Below are positions 3 to 9,560 of a stretch of DNA of 64,000 bases, one piece after another. The notes under the pieces were generated by a model that did no database searches, was not told where the DNA came from, and was given only the letters and a program-made list of their open reading frames with translations. Source of the DNA: Methylovulum sp. Its GTDB lineage: Bacteria; Pseudomonadota; Gammaproteobacteria; Methylococcales; Methylomonadaceae. The DNA lies in the NCBI RefSeq assembly GCF_028687615.1, contig NZ_JAQTZU010000010.1, forward strand, positions 1 through 64,000. Direction: 5' to 3'. A program made the translations under genes and the position numbers. Positions within the stretch are counted from its first letter, which is position 1, and the number at the start of each line of letters is the position of its first letter.

Positions 3-596
3 GCATTTATGCCCTATGGGTACATCGACATCAAATACCTGCCCCAAATGCCTGACGGGGACAGCCGCCGCTACCGCCTCAAAGCCATTGACCTCGCCAC
101 CCGCCGGGTGTTTCTTGCCGTTTACGAGGAGCAGACCTGCGCCAGTAGCGTCGATTTCCTCAAGCGCGTTGTTCGAGCCGCGCCAATGAAAATCGTCAAG
201 CTGCCCACTGACAATGGCACCCAGTTCACCGACCGTTTCACCGGCAAAGGCAAGCAGCCCAGCGGCCAACATGGCTTTGACCAGGCCTGTGCCGGACTCG
301 GTATTGAACATCGCTTAAGTCCACCCCGCCACCCGCAAACCAACGGCATACCCTCTGGGGCACAAGTGGTGGAGCGTTTTAATGGACGGATCAGCGAATT
401 GCTCAAGCAAACCCGGTTTAACTCCGCCGAGGAATTGGAGAAGACCTTGCTCAGCTACCTGGTTATCTATAATCATCATATTCCACAACGCGCCATCAAC
501 CATCAAACACCCATGCAAGCCGTCCAAAAATGGCAAGAAGATAAGCCCGAGTTGTTTGTTAAAAAGGATTATGATCAGGAGGGACTTGACAGTTAA
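3..596 (+). CDS. IS481-like transposase, C-terminal part (gene begins before the window)
   Basis: This is the DDE integrase-core half of an IS481/IS3-type transposase, which cuts and joins insertion-sequence ends. The three acidic positions are visible: Asp in YIDIKYL near the left edge, Asp in TDNGTQF, and Glu in VVERFNGRI. The reading frame is open to the left edge, so the first in-frame ATG at 9 is probably internal and the helix-turn-helix half lies outside the window. After the stop there is no clear terminal inverted repeat, so the right end of the element was not located. It marks the edge of an accessory region. Confidence 0.8.
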   Translation, partial: AFMPYGYIDIKYLPQMPDGDSRRYRLKAIDLATRRVFLAVYEEQTCASSVDFLKRVVRAAPMKIVKLPTDNGTQFTDRFTGKGKQPSGQHGFDQACAGLGIEHRLSPPRHPQTNGIPSGAQVVERFNGRISELLKQTRFNSAEELEKTLLSYLVIYNHHIPQRAINHQTPMQAVQKWQEDKPELFVKKDYDQEGLDS

Positions 597-925: not shown

Positions 926-1783
926 TTACAAACAAAACAACTGATGTTTTTCCAGCGTCCGACGAAAATCTTCCTGCTTACGCAGGTTTTTCAAATCAGA
1001 GTCTTTACGCAATATCTCACAATCGTTAAAGCCGAGACTAAGTGCTTTATCCAGCGGCTCCAAGGCGAGATCAGTTTTATTGATGGCTGAGTAATAAGAC
1101 GCCAGGTTATAAAAAATAACCGAGTCTTTATCGTCGCATTCACTAGCTTTAAGTAAATCTTTTTCAGCCAGATTGAGTTTTTTATCTTGCCAATAAGCGA
1201 TACCGCGATTCATATAAGCACTAGCAAAACAACGGCCTTTCGCTTCTTCCTGTTTAACGGCGGCATCAAATTCCACCAGCGCATTTTTGATATTTTCACT
1301 GCGCGTTTTAGGACTTTGTTTTGCCAATGACACAAACATCATGCCTTGCTTAACATGTTGCTGAGTTTCCAATGAAGGTCCAGGGGCAACCGGTTCGGGT
1401 GGTGCAGGAACTACGGGAGCAGCGGGTGGTTGTTCCGGTTCAACGGCGGCAATAGCGGGCGGAGGACTTTCCTGGCTAACATTAGAGGCTTCCATACTAG
1501 CCAAATCCATGTCAGCCGATTCGGGTGCCGGTGTATCCGTTCCTCGCATAGCCCATACCAAAATACCGGCTAGACACAAACTCACTATGCCACCGCTGAT
1601 TGCCATCAAGCGAACCCGTTTACGACGTGCTTGGTCTGTCGCGCTGTTACTGTTAAACCCTTCGGCTTGTAACGCTTGTCTACATTCAGGACATTTGCCA
1701 TCTTGGGGGATTTCAATTAACTCATTTCTTAATGCCAGATCGCAATTGACGCGATTTGTGCATCTTGCTGTTGCTTGTGCCAT
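926..1783 (-). CDS. zinc-ribbon, single-TM, TPR-like protein
   Basis: The predicted protein has 285 residues. The start is the ATG at 1783, because GGAG lies 7 bases upstream; a TTG 12 bases further up overlaps that site. Order of parts: an N-terminal cysteine cluster (C-x5-C then CPEC, about residues 7-35) typical of zinc ribbons; one membrane helix near 60-80; a Pro/Glu-rich linker; then helical tetratricopeptide-like repeats, with an AYMNRGIAYW-type motif, to the C terminus. The layout suggests a cytoplasmic zinc ribbon and a periplasmic TPR scaffold. It is the last gene of the tubulin-like/caspase set, 23 bases after the tubulin gene. No enzymatic function is visible; an assembly or tethering role is inferred. 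Confidence 0.65.
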   Translation of the reverse strand: MAQATARCTNRVNCDLALRNELIEIPQDGKCPECRQALQAEGFNSNSATDQARRKRVRLMAISGGIVSLCLAGILVWAMRGTDTPAPESADMDLASMEASNVSQESPPPAIAAVEPEQPPAAPVVPAPPEPVAPGPSLETQQHVKQGMMFVSLAKQSPKTRSENIKNALVEFDAAVKQEEAKGRCFASAYMNRGIAYWQDKKLNLAEKDLLKASECDDKDSVIFYNLASYYSAINKTDLALEPLDKALSLGFNDCEILRKDSDLKNLRKQEDFRRTLEKHQLFCL

Positions 1784-1806
1784 TTTAAACTCCAAAAATT
1801 AAAAAA

Positions 1807-4800
1807 TCAGGCGGGGCTATCGAGTAACGTGATGGCATTTTTAGTGCTCTCGCGCAATTTGATATAAAAAACATCTTCGACATTATTACCGCGATGCGTT
1901 AACACAATTCCTAATTGTTCACGTAATTTAACCTTTAAGGTTTCGCGGTTACTGGCGATCTTGTAATGTTCAGACTTGATCAGCGGATTAACGGCTTTCT
2001 CAAGATAAAACACTTGCTCTTCAGTAGCGCTATTGACCGCTTCTTGTAACACGCCGACAGCGACCATATTACTATCGGATGTTACTGTGAACAGCGAAAG
2101 TACATCATTCGGATAAAAGTGATATTCAGGCAACCCATCGCTATCCAATGTTTCCAAACGCCAGCGTTGCTTATCGGTGTTAGGATCGTGCTGGATTTGT
2201 AGTAATTCCAGTGCCAATGCCAATTGATATAAAGGCAAAATACGCTTGCCCATTTGGTCAGGACGCGGGCGGAATAATTCCGGCAAACGGTCGGCAGGAT
2301 GATCTTCGATATGCACCTCAAGCCGCGCACGGGTCGGGTTTTGTTGTAGGCGCAAATCATATTTTTCTTTCAGAAATTGCACCGGCTGCAAAAAACGTAG
2401 CGGAAAGCCAAACTTAAAACAAACCAATGAAATCTGATTAAGATTACGCGAACTATCAACGATACACATCGTAATGCCGGGGGTTTGATTGCCCATAAAC
2501 AAACCTGCCAATTCATCACGAAAGCTTTTTACTTCATCGCAACGCGGCAGAATAACCGCCATCACCGCACTGGGAGTAGTGGTGATTTCACTTTGGTTAA
2601 AGCGCATAAAGGTTTGGGTGCTGGCAACAATATCGCGAATATAGGTGCGTAATTTTTCCCGATCCTGAAATTGTCCCGCCAAACGTGACACAATATTGGC
2701 GCCAATCAAGTGATTATTCAGGCTAGTTGCTTCATCATGCTCCAATTGCGAATTATCACGCGCCACTTGTTCAAGTGTATTTCTTAGGTCACCATGATAG
2801 AGCAAGGCGCCGAAATATTTTTCTTTGCTGCGCGAATCAACTTTGTTAGTTTCAGCGGCATTAACAAACTCTGAGCGTGACCGTTGCGCCCATTGTTTTT
2901 GCTTGCTTTCCGAGGTCAGCAAGCTACGACAAAACTCCTGCACCTTGTCCGGCTCGTAAAACTTAATCAGATTCTGTTTAATATCGGTACTTTCCCCAGA
3001 GCGGCAGGTAGCAGCGCGGCGTTTATCAAAAAATTGCTGTGCGTCTTCGATAGCGCGTTTAAATTCTATAAAATTAACCTGAGTTTTATCACGCAATTCA
3101 TTTAGACAGCGGAGCAACAGTTGTTCGGCGAAACGCCAGGCGGCATTCCAAGTTTGCAATTCGTAGTATTCCTTCAAGCATTCGGCTTGGCTATCGAAAA
3201 GTGCCTCACGTTTTCCCGCCATCTTGCCGAAAATACCGACATTGCCCCAGGCATCCTTGTTTTTGGAGATCAGGTCTAATAATTCGCTACGGCGAATTCC
3301 CATTGCCTTCAAACGTTCGGCAATTTTGCCGGTTCTGTTTCTGGTATCTTCGATTAGATCGTTTAGCAGGGTTTGTAAGTCAACAAAACCGTACTCGCCT
3401 TCCTGCCATTTTTGATACATCCATGCCTGTACCGCATTACAAACCTCGGCAATGTGGGTATTTTCCCTTCCTAGATCATCCTGTTTGGACTTATAAAAGG
3501 TTTCAACACCCGTGTTTCTAAAGTGTTTGTCATAATGTTCCTGAAACGCTTTTTGCAGTAAATCGAGGCGTTCATCGCGTCCGCCTGAAACCGGCACGAC
3601 CCACGCATTGTTTTTAAGCTCATTCGCCGCTTGCGCCCATTCGCTGCCCAGATCATTCCAATGCGCATTGCTCTCGGTTTCCAGCAAGCCCTCGGATAAG
3701 GTAATCTGGTTATTGCTTAATTTCCACGGCCTACGATTAGCCTCTTTTTGGACAAAATCAGCAAAAGACTGGTTTTTAGGTTCGGCACGGAAACGGGTAT
3801 CGCCAGGCATCCAATTGTTGTATAGCATTTGTAAAATGGCTTGTTCGGCAAAACAGGCGGATAAATGCTCGCGGATTTCCTCGTCTGGAATGACAATTTT
3901 TTTCACGCCAAAGGTTTGCAAACGCACGGTGCGCAATTTGAAATTATTGTCGCTGGCTTTGGCTTCATCAGGAATATTAAAATTTTCCAGTGAAATAGCT
4001 GATTTAACGTTTTGAGGAATGGAAGCCGCCGGATCGTCCAACAAAAATACCCGCTGATACAGCAATTGTGCAAACAACTGAGTGACTTCTTGCACAGGTA
4101 TCTTAATGCTGGCTTCGTTGACATTATCCAGAATAAAACAGCCCTGCAAACGGTCTTTTAGCTTGGACGCATTGCCCAAGCTGGTGTTTTCAAAGCGCTG
4201 TGTTTGTCTAGTCAAATCAATTGGTGCGAATAAAGGGCCGCCTTTATTCGGGGTTTCGCTGGCATCGGAAACCAGATAAGCATTTAATTCCTGTAATGCA
4301 GCGTAACCATTAGCGTAGTAATTGGTTTTTTCGCCATTACTCGCCCAAGGTGAATTTTCTTCAGGTAACAGCAGATATAAAAAGATGGGATAGTGCGAGG
4401 AGTTAGGAAATTTGGCGCGTAATTGTGCAATCACATGCAAAAAAGAACCACTACCCGTTCCGCCAGCCAAACCGCTACAAACATGAAATTGCACGCCTTG
4501 TTGGGTACTGGCGCTTTCTAGTTGATGTGTAAGTGTCAGTACATGGATGCCAAAATTACTACATTCGGGTTCAAAGAGAGCCACACCCAAGCGGCGAATT
4601 TGTCCGCCCGCCGTTTCATTAATATTCATCGACGAAAAAATTTCCGCCCAGTCTTCTTTTTTACCAATATAACGGTGGGTAATCGGATAATTTTGTACGT
4701 CATTCAGACGCACACTCAAATTATTTTGTGAAATGGGGAACAGGCTTTCCTTGTTTAAACCAATATCACTACCAATATCATCTTGCGTCCGCCATTGCTC

Positions 4801-4986
4801 GCTTGCTGCCAAATCCGGCTTGCTAGAATCGACATACAGGTATTTGAGATAAATAGAAGAATCCGGCTTAAAACGCGATTGGTTCGGATCATTACAACGA
4901 AACTCCTCGTAAATCGCTTTTCGTAAATTTTTAATTGTTTTACCGCCAGTACCGCCCAAGCCGATAATTAGGTGATTGTTTGACAT
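1807..4986 (-). CDS. large FtsZ/tubulin-superfamily (Tubulin_2-like) protein
   Basis: This is a 1059-residue protein. It opens with a glycine-rich nucleotide loop (IIGLGGTGGKT, residues 7-17) and carries the tubulin/FtsZ phosphate-binding signature as GLAGGTGSG at 172-180. These fit the Tubulin_2 type of FtsZ-like GTPase (families FtsZl described by Makarova and Koonin, linked by them to membrane remodelling). Only about the first 350 residues look like the GTPase; the remaining 700 are mostly helical, with no domain I can name and no membrane segment. The gene starts 9 bases after the membrane-protein gene, so the two are surely cotranscribed. A filament- or scaffold-forming GTPase working with the adjacent membrane protein and caspase is an inference. 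Confidence 0.75.
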   Translation of the reverse strand: MSNNHLIIGLGGTGGKTIKNLRKAIYEEFRCNDPNQSRFKPDSSIYLKYLYVDSSKPDLAASEQWRTQDDIGSDIGLNKESLFPISQNNLSVRLNDVQNYPITHRYIGKKEDWAEIFSSMNINETAGGQIRRLGVALFEPECSNFGIHVLTLTHQLESASTQQGVQFHVCSGLAGGTGSGSFLHVIAQLRAKFPNSSHYPIFLYLLLPEENSPWASNGEKTNYYANGYAALQELNAYLVSDASETPNKGGPLFAPIDLTRQTQRFENTSLGNASKLKDRLQGCFILDNVNEASIKIPVQEVTQLFAQLLYQRVFLLDDPAASIPQNVKSAISLENFNIPDEAKASDNNFKLRTVRLQTFGVKKIVIPDEEIREHLSACFAEQAILQMLYNNWMPGDTRFRAEPKNQSFADFVQKEANRRPWKLSNNQITLSEGLLETESNAHWNDLGSEWAQAANELKNNAWVVPVSGGRDERLDLLQKAFQEHYDKHFRNTGVETFYKSKQDDLGRENTHIAEVCNAVQAWMYQKWQEGEYGFVDLQTLLNDLIEDTRNRTGKIAERLKAMGIRRSELLDLISKNKDAWGNVGIFGKMAGKREALFDSQAECLKEYYELQTWNAAWRFAEQLLLRCLNELRDKTQVNFIEFKRAIEDAQQFFDKRRAATCRSGESTDIKQNLIKFYEPDKVQEFCRSLLTSESKQKQWAQRSRSEFVNAAETNKVDSRSKEKYFGALLYHGDLRNTLEQVARDNSQLEHDEATSLNNHLIGANIVSRLAGQFQDREKLRTYIRDIVASTQTFMRFNQSEITTTPSAVMAVILPRCDEVKSFRDELAGLFMGNQTPGITMCIVDSSRNLNQISLVCFKFGFPLRFLQPVQFLKEKYDLRLQQNPTRARLEVHIEDHPADRLPELFRPRPDQMGKRILPLYQLALALELLQIQHDPNTDKQRWRLETLDSDGLPEYHFYPNDVLSLFTVTSDSNMVAVGVLQEAVNSATEEQVFYLEKAVNPLIKSEHYKIASNRETLKVKLREQLGIVLTHRGNNVEDVFYIKLRESTKNAITLLDSPA

Positions 4987-4995
4987 GGTATGTCT

Positions 4996-5802
4996 CTATG
5001 AGTTTATAGAAGGTGGAGTGTGTGCGGAATGAATGCGAATCTGGCTCAAAGCTGCATAAGCTATCCAGCCCAAACATATCGAGTAACACAAGGCCGTAAA
5101 TAGAATCAGCAGCACACGGGTGATAAAAATAATGCGGGGAATCTGTGGTTCCAATTCGCGGTAAATTTGCTCGACCGCTAGTTGAATGCCGCGTGTATGC
5201 GGATAACTGGTGCCCGGATTAGCCTTGAAATAATTGCTTACATCCTCGCTAACCGCATTCGCCGATATGGCTGGTTTAGTACCGATAATGATGGATAGCA
5301 GTGGGAAATTGAAATTAAAGTTTTCAATCGCTGCTTCGGCGGTCATCTGACTCAGTTTGATACGTGTTTCTGTGTGATTCGCTGGAATCTTCTCACCACC
5401 TTGTTCCGGCGCTGGATAGGTGGAAAAATCCTCAAGTTTCATGTTTTTAATTTCATGATATTGGCTAGTAAATTGTTTATTCTGCCAAGCTTGACTACTC
5501 GCCAGCGCGTCACGCCAATGGGCAATAACCGCTGCAAAAGTCGGCGGCAAATACACGGCAGCAATATAAGTTGGCACAGTAACCGTCACCATCACGGCAA
5601 GCAACCCACAAAGGATATGCTGACCCATGCTTAAACGGTAAGGCTTATAAAACAAACGGCCAAAAAAAGTGCACAAAAGCCATAAGATTGAAGCAAGAGC
5701 CAGACCTGATAGCAATAACAGCACAAAGTATTTCGGATCGTGATCGATAAGCCTATGGATAGCGTCAGAGAATATCGCAAAAAAATTGACGATATAGTTC
5801 AT
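4996..5802 (-). CDS. three-helix membrane protein of the tubulin-caspase cluster
   Basis: The protein has 268 residues. Hydrophobic segments lie at about 25-47 (YFVLLLLSGLALASILW), 62-86 (LCGLLAVMVTVTV) and 222-252. A polar stretch of some 135 residues between helices 2 and 3 is probably periplasmic, because basic residues lie in the short loop between helices 1 and 2. It matches no family I recognise. It sits between the lipoprotein caspase (24 bases upstream) and the tubulin-like gene (9 bases downstream), so it is a natural candidate for the inner-membrane anchor linking a cytoplasmic GTPase to an envelope-side peptidase. That link is inference. Confidence 0.6.
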   Translation of the reverse strand: MNYIVNFFAIFSDAIHRLIDHDPKYFVLLLLSGLALASILWLLCTFFGRLFYKPYRLSMGQHILCGLLAVMVTVTVPTYIAAVYLPPTFAAVIAHWRDALASSQAWQNKQFTSQYHEIKNMKLEDFSTYPAPEQGGEKIPANHTETRIKLSQMTAEAAIENFNFNFPLLSIIIGTKPAISANAVSEDVSNYFKANPGTSYPHTRGIQLAVEQIYRELEPQIPRIIFITRVLLILFTALCYSICLGWIAYAALSQIRIHSAHTPPSINS

Positions 5803-5826
5803 GGTGTTTTCCGGTTGAGGAGTGGG

Positions 5827-7362
5827 TTATCTCGATAAATCAAAGTTGATACATTCATTGGGAGTACTGATCATTTCTGGGGTTTGTGAACAGTTTTCGA
5901 GACTATCGCTAACTACTTTTCTGGTTCTAATCCTTGCGTAATCAAATGCAGGGAATATTTGTCCATGAGAATTTTGCAAACCTTTCGCTAAATAATAAGT
6001 AAAATATGAAGTAGGCACTTTATCTGAATCAAATTGAGACTTTTCGTCACCGCTAGTGGCGGTGAGAATGATTTTTCCTTGCTGTTGTCGAATATTGGTA
6101 TTGCCAAAAGCCGTGCGGAAATTTTCCATCATTTCATAATTATAATTTTCCCCTGACTGTGTTACTTTAAATTTATTTGTATCTGTCAAAAAAAGACTCT
6201 TGCTACCTTTACTGTTACATTTTTCCTGATCAGCGATAAGCTGTTGCTGGGTTTTTATACCAGAAAGTGCCGTGTTGTTATAACTACTAGCACTGCACAT
6301 TTTACCACTACCAATTAAGTCACTTTTATTTTCAGCATTTAAGCTTTGTGAATAGTTTTGTTCACGTTCTACATATTGCGCACCCCCTACAGGATAAGTT
6401 AAAGCCCCCAGTGCTGCGCCGCTGTAACATGTATCAAGAACAGCAACGAACTTGTCGGTGTTAATGCCCGTTATAAAATCTTGTATATCATCAAACGACA
6501 CTGCCGTTTTTAAGGTTGCAATTCGCTGTTTTACTATTTTTATAATGGCATCGTCACCGCTTTCATTCTTATTTATTTTGTCTGCAAGGGCTTGAACATC
6601 TTCCGTTTTTAAATCTGATTTAAGGTCGTATGGAATGATCCCCATTTTCCCAAAAGTATTGGGCGGAGTACCATGTGTGCTAATGTAAAACACCACCGAA
6701 TCATTGGGTGACGCTTTATTCTTCAGTTCTCTCAACGCGTTTAAAATATTGTTTTTTGTTGCTCGCTCGTCTTTAATCAACGTAATGTTTTCTTCTTTAA
6801 ATCCGCTACTTTTTTTCAACGCATCTTTTATCGATTCAATATCTTTAACGGCTGTTTGTATGCCGCCGATTCCATTTTGAAACTTTGACACCCCGACAAG
6901 CAGTGCATACTTTTCGCCTTTGCCACTCAAATTTTGTTGCGGCACATACGATTTAACCAACTTTATTTCTTGTAAATCGCGGGGTGTAACGGGTGAAATG
7001 TCCATTGAACTCGTACCGACAACTGTTAAGGCGGTCATGTAGGCTAAATCGACCTGATCTTCATTCAGGTAAGAGCCTTTGAGCTTAATGCGACCAGATT
7101 TGTCATAGCCCACAAAACCACCAGGTACACCCGCTTTTTTGATTAGCCTAGAAATCCGTTCACAATCTTCTTCGGCAACTTTAGCTATATCTCCAGGATA
7201 AGAAGCAGCGCAACCTTTAGCTTCTTCCTCTTTCGCCAAATCGAGTGCTAAATTGGCGCCTACCGTGGCACAACCTGTTAGCAGTAAGTTACTTGATAAA
7301 AAAATCCATATAAGTTGGGTAGTAATTTTTTTTATCAAGAAGGCTTTGGGTACGGCTGGCAT
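5827..7362 (-). CDS. lipoprotein caspase-family (C14-like) peptidase
   Basis: The protein has 511 residues. An N-terminal hydrophobic segment ends in a lipobox (LLTGC, Cys31), so it is predicted to be a lipid-anchored envelope protein. Residues about 88-130 resemble a BON-type fold (GRIKLKGSYLNEDQ), at low confidence. The caspase domain begins near 151 (YALLVGVSKF) and has the catalytic dyad: His230 in YISTHGTP and Cys312 in VLDTCYSGAA. The last 150 residues are unassigned. GGTGAA lies about 8 bases upstream of the ATG. A terminator separates it from the lipoprotein gene upstream, so it begins the caspase-membrane protein-tubulin-TPR unit. The substrate is unknown. Most recognised bacterial caspase-like proteases are cytoplasmic, so a lipoprotein form is notable. 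Confidence 0.8.
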   Translation of the reverse strand: MPAVPKAFLIKKITTQLIWIFLSSNLLLTGCATVGANLALDLAKEEEAKGCAASYPGDIAKVAEEDCERISRLIKKAGVPGGFVGYDKSGRIKLKGSYLNEDQVDLAYMTALTVVGTSSMDISPVTPRDLQEIKLVKSYVPQQNLSGKGEKYALLVGVSKFQNGIGGIQTAVKDIESIKDALKKSSGFKEENITLIKDERATKNNILNALRELKNKASPNDSVVFYISTHGTPPNTFGKMGIIPYDLKSDLKTEDVQALADKINKNESGDDAIIKIVKQRIATLKTAVSFDDIQDFITGINTDKFVAVLDTCYSGAALGALTYPVGGAQYVEREQNYSQSLNAENKSDLIGSGKMCSASSYNNTALSGIKTQQQLIADQEKCNSKGSKSLFLTDTNKFKVTQSGENYNYEMMENFRTAFGNTNIRQQQGKIILTATSGDEKSQFDSDKVPTSYFTYYLAKGLQNSHGQIFPAFDYARIRTRKVVSDSLENCSQTPEMISTPNECINFDLSR

Positions 7363-7410
7363 AAGAATTCACCATGTAGGTTAAATATTTCCAGCAAATG
7401 CTGGATTAAT

Positions 7411-7443
7411 AAAAAGGGCATACTGTGTAGTGTCTGTATGCCC
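7411..7443 (-). terminator. intrinsic terminator between lipoprotein and caspase genes
   Basis: On the minus strand an 8-bp stem (GGGCATAC at 7416-7423 with GTATGCCC at 7436-7443) is followed directly by a run of T. A second small hairpin, CCAGCAAATGCTGG, lies at 7391-7404. It falls 36 bases after the frame-corrected end of the lipoprotein gene, which supports that longer reading frame, and it makes the caspase gene the head of a separate unit. Confidence 0.7.
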
Positions 7444-7479
7444 AAGACTTCATATTTTTACTTTCTATTTGGCTTTTTG

Positions 7480-8201
7480 TTAAATCCGATAAACTTTTTC
7501 AGAAACAGTTTGGGTGGATGCTAAACCACATTTGTTAACACCATCATTAGCAACCGTGTAACAGAAATTCAGGACACCTCCTTCAATTTCACTGTTATTA
7601 GAAGCGTCAATCAATTTGATTGTCGTGTTATAGACACCTTCTTTATAGGTATGACCCAAGGTAATAAATAATCACCACCACATCCTTTTGTTATTGCCCT
7701 ACCCGTATTTTTTTCTCCGCCAGAGGTTACATTATTTTTGAATGTAACCTCTTGCTCTTGACCACTTGCACCTGGTGTAGCTAAATCCATTTTAACGGAA
7801 ATTTTCAAATTTTCTCCAGGGCTGACGACTTGCGCGGGTTGTTGTGCAAATTTGAGTAAAGCTACGGGGTTGCTTGAAGTTGAAGAATAATTCATGCGCC
7901 TTTTTACTGACGCACAATCCATTGCAGGTACCGCTTTTTCAGCCGCTTCATCCATAGAAGCCGCCCAAGCGCCCACGGCAGCACCAACCGCCATACCTGC
8001 CGCAACGCAAGCAGCAGTATTTTTTCCACCCGTCATCTTATCGCACAAAACACCCGTACCCGCGCCAGCCGCAACACCTGCCAGTATTCCTGTACCGGTA
8101 GACCCCATTGCGGTAGAAGCTTGTTGCATCGTTTCGCAACCACTGATTAAAAAAGTGGTAGAGGCAACTAACGCGACGATTTTGTAATTTATTTTTTTCA
8201 T
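7480..8201 (-). pseudogene. glycine-zipper lipoprotein, frameshifted near its 3' end
   Basis: As written the ORF stops at 7611 (196 residues). It has a lipobox (LISGC, Cys22) and a glycine-zipper segment (GTGILAGVAAGAGTG, then AAGMAVGAAVGAW), the pattern of envelope-spanning lipoproteins. At about 7665-7670, within TTATTTATTA, a one-base shift opens a frame that continues for about 60 more sensible residues (GHTYKEGVYNTT, NFCYTVANDGVNKC) to a TAA at 7480, just before the terminator. The original gene was therefore about 240 residues. The shift may be a real deletion in a T run, a sequencing error, or less likely programmed frameshifting. The start follows a TTTCC-rich leader with AAAGGAAA upstream. 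Confidence 0.7.
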
Positions 8202-8223
8202 TATTATTTCCTTTCGGTGATTA

Positions 8224-9072
8224 TTAACGGTGGGTTAAATTGAAATCAACAAACAAAACTTGGCCTTCGTCGAGTGCGGCAGCAGGTACGACTGAATAAC
8301 TGGCAGGTTCAGCAGAAGTGGTATCTTCCTCGGCAAACATACCCTTAGAACCGGCATTGTGTTTGCTGCGCATACAATCAATACTAGAACCACTTTCTTC
8401 GGCGAACATACCTTTACTACCTGCGCCACCACTGTCTGCGCAATCAAAATACCGAGATTGTTCAGTGTAAGCCGCCGTAGTTCCCTTTGCTGAAGGTGTT
8501 GGTTCCGAATTGGGTATAGGGAATTTGGCAAGTGCAATAGTGACTTTTTCGTTACTCGGCACATTATCAAAAGCGATTGCGCCATGTGTGGGGATGGTAT
8601 AAATGTGATTAGGCTCTATCAGGCCTGATGTCTGTCCCTTCGCCGGGTAAAGCGGCGTTTGTTGTCCTGAAGCATCTTGATTCAGGACATACAAATAGCC
8701 TTCAGTCTTACTTTTGATTTGCAATTTGATACGGTCACCGCTATGGAAAGTATATCCCGTTGTTACTTTCCGACTACTGCCATCGGCTTCCTGTAAATCA
8801 ATCCAGTATTGCAAACCGGCATAACTGACTGGGGTTTGTTCAGTTCTATCATTGCGGGCTTGAGAAATAACCCTTGGTTTGGGTCTCGATGTCGTTGGTT
8901 TTACTCTGGCAGGCGTTGTATCTGTATTAGCATCTTCATCATTCATCATGACTGATGTGCCTTCATCAGCAAACATAGACTTGGCGCCCGCTTCGGCTAA
9001 AGCTAACGTTGGACAAGTTAATGCACACAATGCCGCCGCTAAAATGGCGTTATTGAGAGGTGGCCTTTGCGT
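8224..9072 (-). CDS. exported DUF4384-domain protein with lost native start
   Basis: From the DNA, a signal peptide (ILAAALCALTCPTLALAEA) leads into a low-complexity linker and then a DUF4384-type beta domain (YWIDLQEADG, GDRIKLQI, GYLYVLNQDASG, LYPAKG). A short motif occurs three times: AKSMFADEG just after the signal peptide, and SKGMFAEES and SKGMFAEED near the C terminus. No ATG precedes the signal peptide within its own sequence; upstream codons run in frame into an IS5-type transposase remnant, and the open frame continues to an ATG at 9435 inside that element. The native start has been replaced, and expression, if any, would use IS sequence or a rare start codon. DUF4384 proteins are often found beside caspase-like and other regulated envelope genes; the role here is unknown. 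Confidence 0.6.
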   Translation of the reverse strand, partial: TQRPPLNNAILAAALCALTCPTLALAEAGAKSMFADEGTSVMMNDEDANTDTTPARVKPTTSRPKPRVISQARNDRTEQTPVSYAGLQYWIDLQEADGSSRKVTTGYTFHSGDRIKLQIKSKTEGYLYVLNQDASGQQTPLYPAKGQTSGLIEPNHIYTIPTHGAIAFDNVPSNEKVTIALAKFPIPNSEPTPSAKGTTAAYTEQSRYFDCADSGGAGSKGMFAEESGSSIDCMRSKHNAGSKGMFAEEDTTSAEPASYSVVPAAALDEGQVLFVDFNLTHR

Positions 9073-9560
9073 CCGGCGCTCCGTGCCGTCAATGATGAAT
9101 TCCCGCTGGGACGAAGCTTCGAGGCGTTGTTCCGCCGAAACGGGGCCACGCGCCGGCCATCGCCAACGCCTTTTGCAGGATGGTGCTGAGGCGGGCAATC
9201 CATTCATGGGCGCGGCCTTGGGACATCCCGAACAGAAAACCCATGACCACCTGTAATGGGTACAACTTGAGGTAAACCAATATGAAAAACAGCCGGTCTT
9301 CCGCTGCCCGCAGTGTGGTCGGCACCGCGCCGCCACCGGGCTTGCGCCGCCGTTCCTGGTGGGCGGAGGCGGCCTCAAGGTGTTCTTCCCACGCCTTTTC
9401 AAAGTGGCCCGGCAGACCTTCAAATTCAGCGGCATCCAGCCCTGTGAAGCTTCTGAAAACGGAAGGGCAGGTTATGACATTGGCACAAAAAAGCATGGCG
9501 TATCAATCTCATTGGGCAAAGGTTTTGGGGCGGGTCCGCTCAATAATGGTGGCTTGGGGG
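9064..9560 (-). mobile_element. IS5-family transposase remnant, 5' part
   Basis: Minus-strand frames encode the N-terminal helix-turn-helix part of an IS5/ISL2-type transposase (FRSFTGLDAAEFEGL, then RLFFILVYLKLYPLQ and GFLFGMSQGRAHEW). After a frameshift near 9120 they encode the start of its DDE domain (EFIIDGTERRTQRP). At about 9060-9072 the similarity stops and the signal peptide of the DUF4384 gene begins in the same frame. The catalytic half is absent, so the element is dead. An eleven-base G run at 9555-9565 lies near its outer edge. Bases up to 9642 hold nothing else recognised. Confidence 0.75.

What the first reader, a model, noticed from the sequence alone, without database searches (positions are those of the whole stretch)
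926..9072. Envelope caspase with a tubulin-like GTPase: candidate undescribed system
Seen: four minus-strand genes with gaps of 9-24 bases encode a lipoprotein caspase (His230, Cys312), a three-helix membrane protein, a 1059-residue FtsZ/tubulin-like protein (GLAGGTGSG) and a zinc-ribbon/TM/TPR protein. Just upstream lie a glycine-zipper lipoprotein and an exported DUF4384 protein. Known: FtsZ-like Tubulin_2 proteins have been linked to membrane remodelling by gene context, and bacterial caspase-like proteases act in stress and defence. Inferred: a transmembrane assembly in which a cytoplasmic GTPase scaffold controls or responds to an envelope protease, possibly in defence or programmed envelope change. 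I know of no described system with exactly these parts.
Basis: partly seen in the sequence, partly recalled or inferred. Interest (0 to 1): 0.85.

Follow-up and report, generated by a model that had tools for sequence, protein, structure and literature searches.

The report
Tubulin-linked envelope caspase operon
Some methane-eating bacteria and a few unrelated bacteria carry a mobile-looking gene set that pairs a tubulin-like protein inside the cell with a caspase-type protease on the cell envelope, perhaps a self-destruct or defence device; I found no description of it as a system.

Summary
The observation mostly holds. Four intact minus-strand genes encode a zinc-ribbon/TM/TPR protein, a Tubulin_2 protein, a three-TM protein and a lipoprotein caspase. 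The two upstream genes are damaged in this copy: DUF4384 lost its start to a broken transposase, and the glycine-zipper gene is frameshifted. The six-gene order is intact in five other Methylococcales loci and split over two contigs in a sixth. Caspase lipoprotein, DUF4384, Tubulin_2 and zinc-ribbon-TPR recur in an unrelated family and on a Paraburkholderia plasmid, without the three-TM protein. New here: a zinc-ribbon/TM 'tether' that accompanies Tubulin_2 and carries different periplasmic parts, and two near-identical operons that differ by a replaced caspase/glycine-zipper block. Related Tubulin_2 proteins also sit in VMAP and TIR/STAND loci. The operon is AT-rich and lies at different sites, once beside conjugation genes. 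Best reading: a mobile trans-envelope conflict system with a Tubulin_2 switch and an envelope caspase effector. The defence role is inferred; motility or envelope remodelling is a real rival.

The parts
926..1795 (-). zinc ribbon + one TM ('tether') + periplasmic TPR protein; likely start 1783 by comparison with relatives
   Evidence: TPR_1 over cut-off; tether alignment with four invariant Cys; TM at 63-81
1807..4986 (-). Tubulin_2 (FtsZl1-type) protein, 1059 aa
   Evidence: PF13809 152.5 bits; GTP loop GLAGGTGSG; no TM by hydropathy
4996..5802 (-). three-TM protein (TM3), no named family
   Evidence: no Pfam hit over cut-off; relatives beside Tubulin_2 in five further loci, L035, L036, L038, L039, L041
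5827..7362 (-). lipoprotein caspase (Peptidase_C14), His230/Cys312
   Evidence: PF00656 48.3 bits; dyad invariant in 7 of 7; metacaspases rank first in Foldseek
7611..8201 (-). glycine-zipper lipoprotein gene, frameshifted; out-of-frame tail to about 7480
   Evidence: alignment and three-frame translation
8224..9060 (-). DUF4384 gene, 5' truncated
   Evidence: PF14326 42.5 bits; junction with transposase fragment near 9060
9089..9496 (-). broken transposase fragment (HTH_Tnp_4) that replaced the DUF4384 start; not part of the system
   Evidence: PF13613 39.3 bits, sequence

Best explanation
A mobile, multi-gene trans-envelope conflict system, most likely for anti-phage or other abortive defence. 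Inside the cell the Tubulin_2 protein is a GTP-dependent switch or scaffold. It docks on the cytoplasmic zinc ribbon of a single-TM tether protein and, in Methylococcales, on the three-TM protein. The tether carries a TPR domain into the periplasm. There it meets the exported DUF4384 protein, the glycine-zipper lipoprotein and the lipoprotein caspase (the Ala after its lipidated Cys suggests the outer membrane, by a recalled sorting rule). A trigger changes Tubulin_2 assembly, the tether clusters or releases the caspase, and proteolysis in the envelope kills the cell or frees an effector. Shown: genes, order, topology signals, catalytic residues, recurrence, Tubulin_2-tether linkage, caspase-block replacement, signs of mobility. 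Inferred: docking, GTP control, trigger, substrate, defence outcome.
For: Six-gene order in five other loci and one split locus. Caspase-DUF4384-Tubulin_2-tether-TPR in L137 and on the Paraburkholderia plasmid L034, dyad and lipobox Cys kept. Full-family caspase (over 500 bits) in 9 of 251 genomes of the order, 7 of them with Tubulin_2. Strong tether in 12 of 15 Tubulin_2 genomes and in 0 of 236 others at 45 bits. Caspase/glycine-zipper block replaced between L003 and L004. Conflict-type partners of related Tubulin_2: VMAP-C + PNP (L040), TIR, STAND and TPR-S (L092). Foreign base composition and unshared flanks. Conjugation genes next to L006 and restriction-modification genes near L006 and L008.
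Against: Window flanks: 39 ORFs gave 11 PADLOC families, one ORF each, that I read as housekeeping look-alikes without resolving each; no system recognised. The SMC/LmuB hit in L008 may be housekeeping SbcC, since the window's UvrA-like protein also hits a PADLOC model (mad3) strongly. A Tubulin_2 protein of Synechocystis affects phototaxis. TM3 not found outside Methylococcales. No relatives in phages or viral contigs. No sign of positive selection. No test of activity; caspase model of low confidence; no Tubulin_2 model.
Confidence: 0.45

Rival explanations
1. A membrane-remodelling, pilus or motility apparatus: Tubulin_2 positions envelope complexes, and the caspase matures or turns over an envelope component.
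For: Makarova and Koonin proposed membrane remodelling from context (vWA, GTPase, OmpA). Synechocystis sll0445 (Tubulin_2) mutants have impaired phototaxis and the protein is reported in complexes with pilus proteins. Relatives here sit with OmpA, PBP, ABC and FtsX-like genes, some below Pfam cut-off.
Against: Patchy presence (15 of 251 genomes of the order), foreign base composition, replaced caspase block and TIR/VMAP partners of related proteins suit an accessory conflict system better.
Confidence: 0.27
2. An envelope stress or quality-control protease system: damage in the periplasm is sensed and the caspase cleaves damaged or regulatory envelope proteins, without any invader.
For: All parts except Tubulin_2 carry envelope signals; DUF4384 and OmpA partners in G500.
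Against: Rare and patchy; mobile signs; a core stress system would be expected to be more stable.
Confidence: 0.15
3. A conjugation accessory (entry exclusion, mate selection or transfer aid) carried by conjugative elements.
For: In L006 the operon lies directly upstream of traE, traK, traB-like and traC genes; one relative lies on a plasmid.
Against: Conjugation genes were seen at one locus only; L008 shows none in its 23 kb by the Pfam scan of five flanking genes; the L034 plasmid is typed non-mobilizable.
Confidence: 0.08
4. In the window's own strain the system is a decaying remnant without function.
For: DUF4384 start lost and glycine-zipper gene frameshifted.
Against: Four genes are intact with catalytic and GTP-loop residues kept; the glycine-zipper gene was not found in L034 or L137, so it may be dispensable.
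Confidence: 0.05

Closest known systems
FtsZl1 / Tubulin_2 systems (Makarova and Koonin 2010, PMC2875224; parts 1-2 of 5 read)
   Same: Tubulin_2 domain over the Pfam cut-off; membrane-linked operon; relatives with vWA and OmpA proteins.
   Different: No vWA, P-loop GTPase or kinase in the window operon; a caspase is not named in the parts read (additional files not read).
GTPase-centred and ternary conflict systems with tubulins (Kaur et al. 2020, PMC7159879; passages and section 33 read)
   Same: Constant NTP-dependent core with variable effectors, some with tubulin, caspase or zinc ribbons.
   Different: No DO-GTPase, GAP1, MoxR, vWA or VMAP hit in the window operon; effectors here are exported or lipidated.
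EACC1-caspase two-gene system (Kaur et al. 2020)
   Same: Membrane-linked caspase; nearest NCBIfam model of the window caspase is caspase_w_EACC1.
   Different: 67.7 bits against a cut-off of 140; no EACC1 hit; six genes rather than two.
Synechocystis Sll0445-Sll0447 (PMC9880817; section 9 read)
   Same: Tubulin_2 protein in an envelope-linked context.
   Different: FtsA-like and DivIC-like partners, motility phenotype, no caspase mentioned in that section.

Membership tests
FtsZl1 / Tubulin_2 | PF13809 over its gathering score | tested here: met
   152.5 bits, cut-off 27
FtsZl1 / Tubulin_2 | GTP loop GGGTG(S/T)G | tested here: inconclusive
   window has AGGTGSG within GLAGGTGSG: first Gly is Ala
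FtsZl1 / Tubulin_2 | operon with vWA, GTPase or OmpA partners (frequent, not obligatory) | tested here: not met
   none among the window's operon genes; present in relatives
FtsZl1 / Tubulin_2 | long coiled coil and helical C-terminal domain | not tested
   structure job never accepted
Peptidase C14 (caspase superfamily) | domain over cut-off and His/Cys dyad | tested here: met
   48.3 bits, cut-off 21.4; dyad in 7 of 7; metacaspase fold hits
EACC1-caspase system | caspase over the EACC1-type cut-off | tested here: not met
   67.7 of 140 bits
EACC1-caspase system | 5' EACC1 gene | tested here: not met
   no such hit in Pfam or NCBIfam scans of the operon
VMAP ternary system | MoxR AAA+, vWA and VMAP proteins | tested here: not met
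   absent from the window operon; AAA and VMAP-C found in relative L040
Known anti-phage systems in PADLOC | matches to a named system's components | tested here: not met
   of six operon proteins only the caspase matches (model 'caspase', 2.7e-10)
Anti-phage defence system | protects cells from phage | not testable with these tools
   needs experiment

The most novel reading that the evidence does not exclude
Tubulin_2 plus the zinc-ribbon-TM tether is the constant core of a broad, unnamed class of trans-envelope conflict machines with plug-in periplasmic effectors (caspase, vWA, PBP/OmpA and others). In the caspase version the caspase and the glycine-zipper lipoprotein are a matched pair that is replaced together: the caspase releases the glycine-zipper protein to perforate the outer membrane. 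That would be an envelope counterpart of caspase-gasdermin pairs, run from the other side of the inner membrane by a tubulin-like switch.
Probability: 0.22. Interest if true: 0.88.

Novelty: new variant of a known kind. Interest (0 to 1): 0.7.

Why it matters
Tubulin_2 proteins were described in 2010 from gene context, and the only functional data that my searches turned up are motility mutants in Synechocystis. This work gives them a recurring partner domain (the zinc-ribbon-TM tether), a defined operon with a protease whose active site can be mutated, and natural operon pairs that differ mainly in the caspase block. That makes the function of Tubulin_2 testable, and raises the possibility of a caspase effector that acts in the periplasm under cytoplasmic NTP control.

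Tried and rejected
Phage or prophage origin: no Tubulin_2 relative in 50,697 phage records; a viral-contig scan matched 52 stretches but none encoded a relative. EACC1 membership: rejected on score and missing partner. The trio as worded (with TM3): rejected, since the TM3 profile did not hit L034, L043 or L137. Positive selection as the cause of caspase divergence: computable dN/dS values stay below 0.17, several dS values being saturated; unequal synonymous divergence between genes points to recombination. The LmuB hit in L008 is not counted as a Lamassu system. Literature searches that turned up no description of this operon: (open-licence PMC papers only; DUF4384+caspase gave 3 papers, seen as listing and abstract starts).

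Missed at first: my ORF choice hid the Paraburkholderia caspase behind a longer antisense ORF; scanning every ORF recovered it. The profile used then included L137. A motif script found 13 zinc-ribbon+TM proteins in 394 ORFs of 26 loci, one of them of a different type (L010:1822), and missed some true ones such as L008 and L043:7445.

Rows dropped or not worked out: the tree used 14 of 18 Tubulin_2 rows, those over 500 bits, and carries long-branch warnings. Distant Tubulin_2 loci L044, L045, L055, L056, L057 and L093 were fetched, but few or none of their partners were scanned. The 45-bit tether threshold was set after seeing the gap; at E up to 1e-3 it is 12 of 15 against 5 of 236. The tether profile was built from neighbours of Tubulin_2 in many of the same genomes. 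Fisher tests ignore relatedness. The 19 comparison genes for GC were picked by me from the window.
Full report
CHECK OF THE OBSERVATION. Pfam names Tubulin_2 (152.5 bits, cut-off 27), Peptidase_C14 (48.3, cut-off 21.4) and TPR; the 268-aa protein has no family over cut-off. Hydropathy gives it three TM segments and the TPR protein one. His230 and Cys312 are invariant in 7 of 7 caspases. The caspase model is of low confidence (mean pLDDT 57, pTM 0.58), but Foldseek ranks plant metacaspase-9 and yeast Yca1 among the first three (E 6e-6 and 2e-5), in line with a profile search of PDB sequences (metacaspase-1, 1e-7). The two upstream genes are damaged: the DUF4384 frame runs back into a broken transposase fragment, and the glycine-zipper gene shifts frame. 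The window may hold a partly decayed copy.

RECURRENCE IN RELATIVES. The nearest named loci are Methylovulum and other Methylococcales. Tubulin_2 relatives were found in 5 of 20 genomes of the genus, 15 of 251 of the order, 4 of 398 of the phylum with this protein, 8 of 398 with the Pfam model, 7 over its cut-off, 3 of 303 of the class with a 12-row profile and 3 of 70 of the family of G500. Each count but the last includes the window's own genome. The order DUF4384, glycine zipper, caspase, TM3, Tubulin_2, zinc-ribbon-TPR is intact in L003, L004, L005, L006 and L008, and split over two contigs inside Tubulin_2 in L009+L010. L007 starts inside TM3 and carries Tubulin_2 and the tether. L091 ends inside the caspase. 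L090 has the first three genes and then an unrelated 378-aa ORF near the contig end.

The caspase family is tied to this operon. In the order, 112 of 251 genomes have some caspase match at E up to 1e-3, but only 9 exceed 500 bits and the next genome's best scores 71. Seven of the 9 have Tubulin_2; the other two are the L090 and L091 genomes. Fisher p for co-occurrence is 1.9e-8, relatedness ignored.

RECURRENCE IN UNRELATED LINEAGES. L137 (G985, a family of the same class but another family than the window's) has caspase lipoprotein, DUF4384, Tubulin_2 and zinc-ribbon-TPR in a row; its caspase scores 127.8 bits with the Methylococcales profile. L034, on a 1.09-Mb Paraburkholderia plasmid, has the same row. 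These caspases are 28% and 31% identical to the window's and keep the lipobox Cys, the His and the Cys. Their Tubulin_2 proteins are 65% identical to each other and 26-27% to the window's. The profile that found the L034 caspase (242.8 bits) included L137. A third case, G500, has OmpA, DUF4384, Tubulin_2, two zinc-ribbon-TM proteins, a caspase with DUF4384 and a signal-like N-terminus, a CHAT protein, a divergent caspase with a lipobox-like N-terminus, and one more caspase close by. The TM3 and glycine-zipper profiles hit none of these three loci. In the third Tubulin_2 genome of that family (G992, L138) no caspase was hit by the profile.

THE TETHER. Proteins next to Tubulin_2 share an N-terminal zinc ribbon and one TM (14-row alignment, four invariant Cys). 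Different parts follow: TPR (window, L034, L043, L137), PBP-like plus OmpA (L037), vWA (L035 over cut-off; L039 below it), and stretches without a Pfam match (L038, L039:698, L121:7768). In 251 genomes of the order, 17 match at E up to 1e-3. Twelve have a best score of 81.6 bits or more, and all 12 are among the 15 Tubulin_2 genomes. Elsewhere the best are 42 and 39 bits (G114, G062; the latter with ankyrin repeats), and three genomes score 20-22. Tubulin_2 genomes without a tether match are G143, G167 and G177. Fisher p is 2.7e-14 at E up to 1e-3 and 4.6e-18 at 45 bits, a threshold set afterwards. The profile came from neighbours of Tubulin_2, so the informative part is the absence in other genomes. 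G047 has four matches within 13 kb downstream of Tubulin_2, one of them at 36 bits.

VARIABLE PARTS. L003 and L004 are 98.6% identical in DNA from the start of TM3 to the end of the match (TM3 itself 90-98% in most 100-base steps) and 98-100% over DUF4384. Between these, a block from early in the glycine-zipper gene to the end of the caspase falls to 40-76%, with gaps. The caspases are 45% and the glycine-zipper proteins 54% identical, Tubulin_2 100%. The block has been replaced. Between the window and L004, synonymous divergence is 0.75 in Tubulin_2 and 1.9 in the caspase, again suggesting mosaic history. All computable dN/dS values are below 0.17; some dS values are saturated.

CONFLICT-TYPE RELATIVES. 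L040 has Tubulin_2 on the C-terminal side of a 1430-aa protein beside an AAA protein and a PNP_UDP_1+VMAP-C protein; I read its N-terminal part as a degenerate vWA (sequence printed; no profile hit). Its Tubulin_2 is 80% identical to that of L039, which sits with TM3, two tethers and vWA-like and FtsX-like proteins below cut-off. L092 has Tubulin_2 with a STAND-type NTPase (nSTAND6 over cut-off) beside an AAA+TIR protein and a TPR-S protein. A 14-row tree groups L040 with L039 (99/98) and L092 with L037 (97/98), with long-branch warnings elsewhere. So similar Tubulin_2 proteins serve envelope-type and immune-type partner sets. Kaur et al. 2020 already described tubulins in DO-GTPase systems and rare ones as effectors in ternary systems (passages and section 33 read).

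MOBILITY AND NEIGHBOURHOOD. The operon is 43.3% GC against 49.2% for the rest; GC3 of its six genes is 0.335-0.454 against a mean of 0.572 (minimum 0.492) for 19 window genes that I chose. Among 56 flanking ORFs of ten loci (window: first 20 kb), the only shared gene is one in L003 and L004. In L006 the operon is followed by traE, traK, traB-like and traC genes; a complete type I restriction-modification set lies 20-27 kb away on the same contig (L126). In L008 a type II methyltransferase and restriction enzyme lie 5-8 kb away, and an SMC/SbcC-like gene is adjacent. Against this, 39 other ORFs of the window matched 11 PADLOC families at E up to 1e-20, one ORF each, which I read as housekeeping look-alikes (the strongest-resolved is the UvrA-like 984-aa protein, name recalled) without resolving each; no system was recognised.

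MECHANISM AND JUDGEMENT. Shown: parts, order, recurrence, catalytic residues, tether linkage, block replacement, signs of mobility. Inferred: a cytoplasmic Tubulin_2 switch docks on the tether's zinc ribbon, and its assembly state is passed through the membrane to an envelope caspase. Joint replacement of glycine-zipper gene and caspase suggests a matched pair, perhaps protease and substrate. The defence role rests on the company kept and on the constant-core, variable-effector pattern that Kaur et al. take as a mark of conflict. The strongest counter-evidence is the Synechocystis phototaxis phenotype (section 9 read). Makarova and Koonin 2010 was read in parts 1 and 2 of 5; its additional files were not, so a caspase among their unnamed families cannot be excluded. 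PMC10910872 and PMC9871819 were seen as passages only.

Noticed in passing
L040:8028-15271: Tubulin_2 on the C-terminal side of a 1430-aa protein, beside an AAA protein and a PNP_UDP_1+VMAP-C protein: looks like a VMAP-type ternary conflict system with a tubulin effector.
   Followed up: partly
L092:6388-14851: TPR-S protein, Tubulin_2 with a STAND-type NTPase, and an AAA+TIR protein in a row.
   Followed up: partly
L035:7391-19877 and L121:3143-9315: Large Tubulin_2 locus with TM3, four tether matches, vWA, ABC ATPase, FtsX-like permease, FGE-sulfatase and lipoproteins.
   Followed up: partly
L043:2117-15284 and L139:4950-5756: G500 locus with Tubulin_2, three C14 caspases and one CHAT protein within about 15 kb.
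   Followed up: partly
L034:18842-19555, L137:13710-14420, L043:6892-7467: A domain with a G(R/H)W(R/Q)AE start appears as a lipoprotein in two loci and on a zinc-ribbon-TM tether in the third.
   Followed up: no
L003:8293-9369, L004:9372-10469: A further hydrophobic gene (358/365 aa, three TM segments by hydropathy, no Pfam hit for the L003 copy) follows the TPR gene in these two loci only.
   Followed up: no
L090:10487-11623: A four-TM 378-aa ORF follows the DUF4384-glycine-zipper-caspase genes where TM3 would be expected; the contig ends just after it.
   Followed up: no
L122:8963-10027: A tether-like protein with ankyrin repeats in a genome without a Tubulin_2 match.
   Followed up: no
window 3-596: Partial IS481-type transposase at the contig end, below its NCBIfam cut-off.
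   Followed up: no
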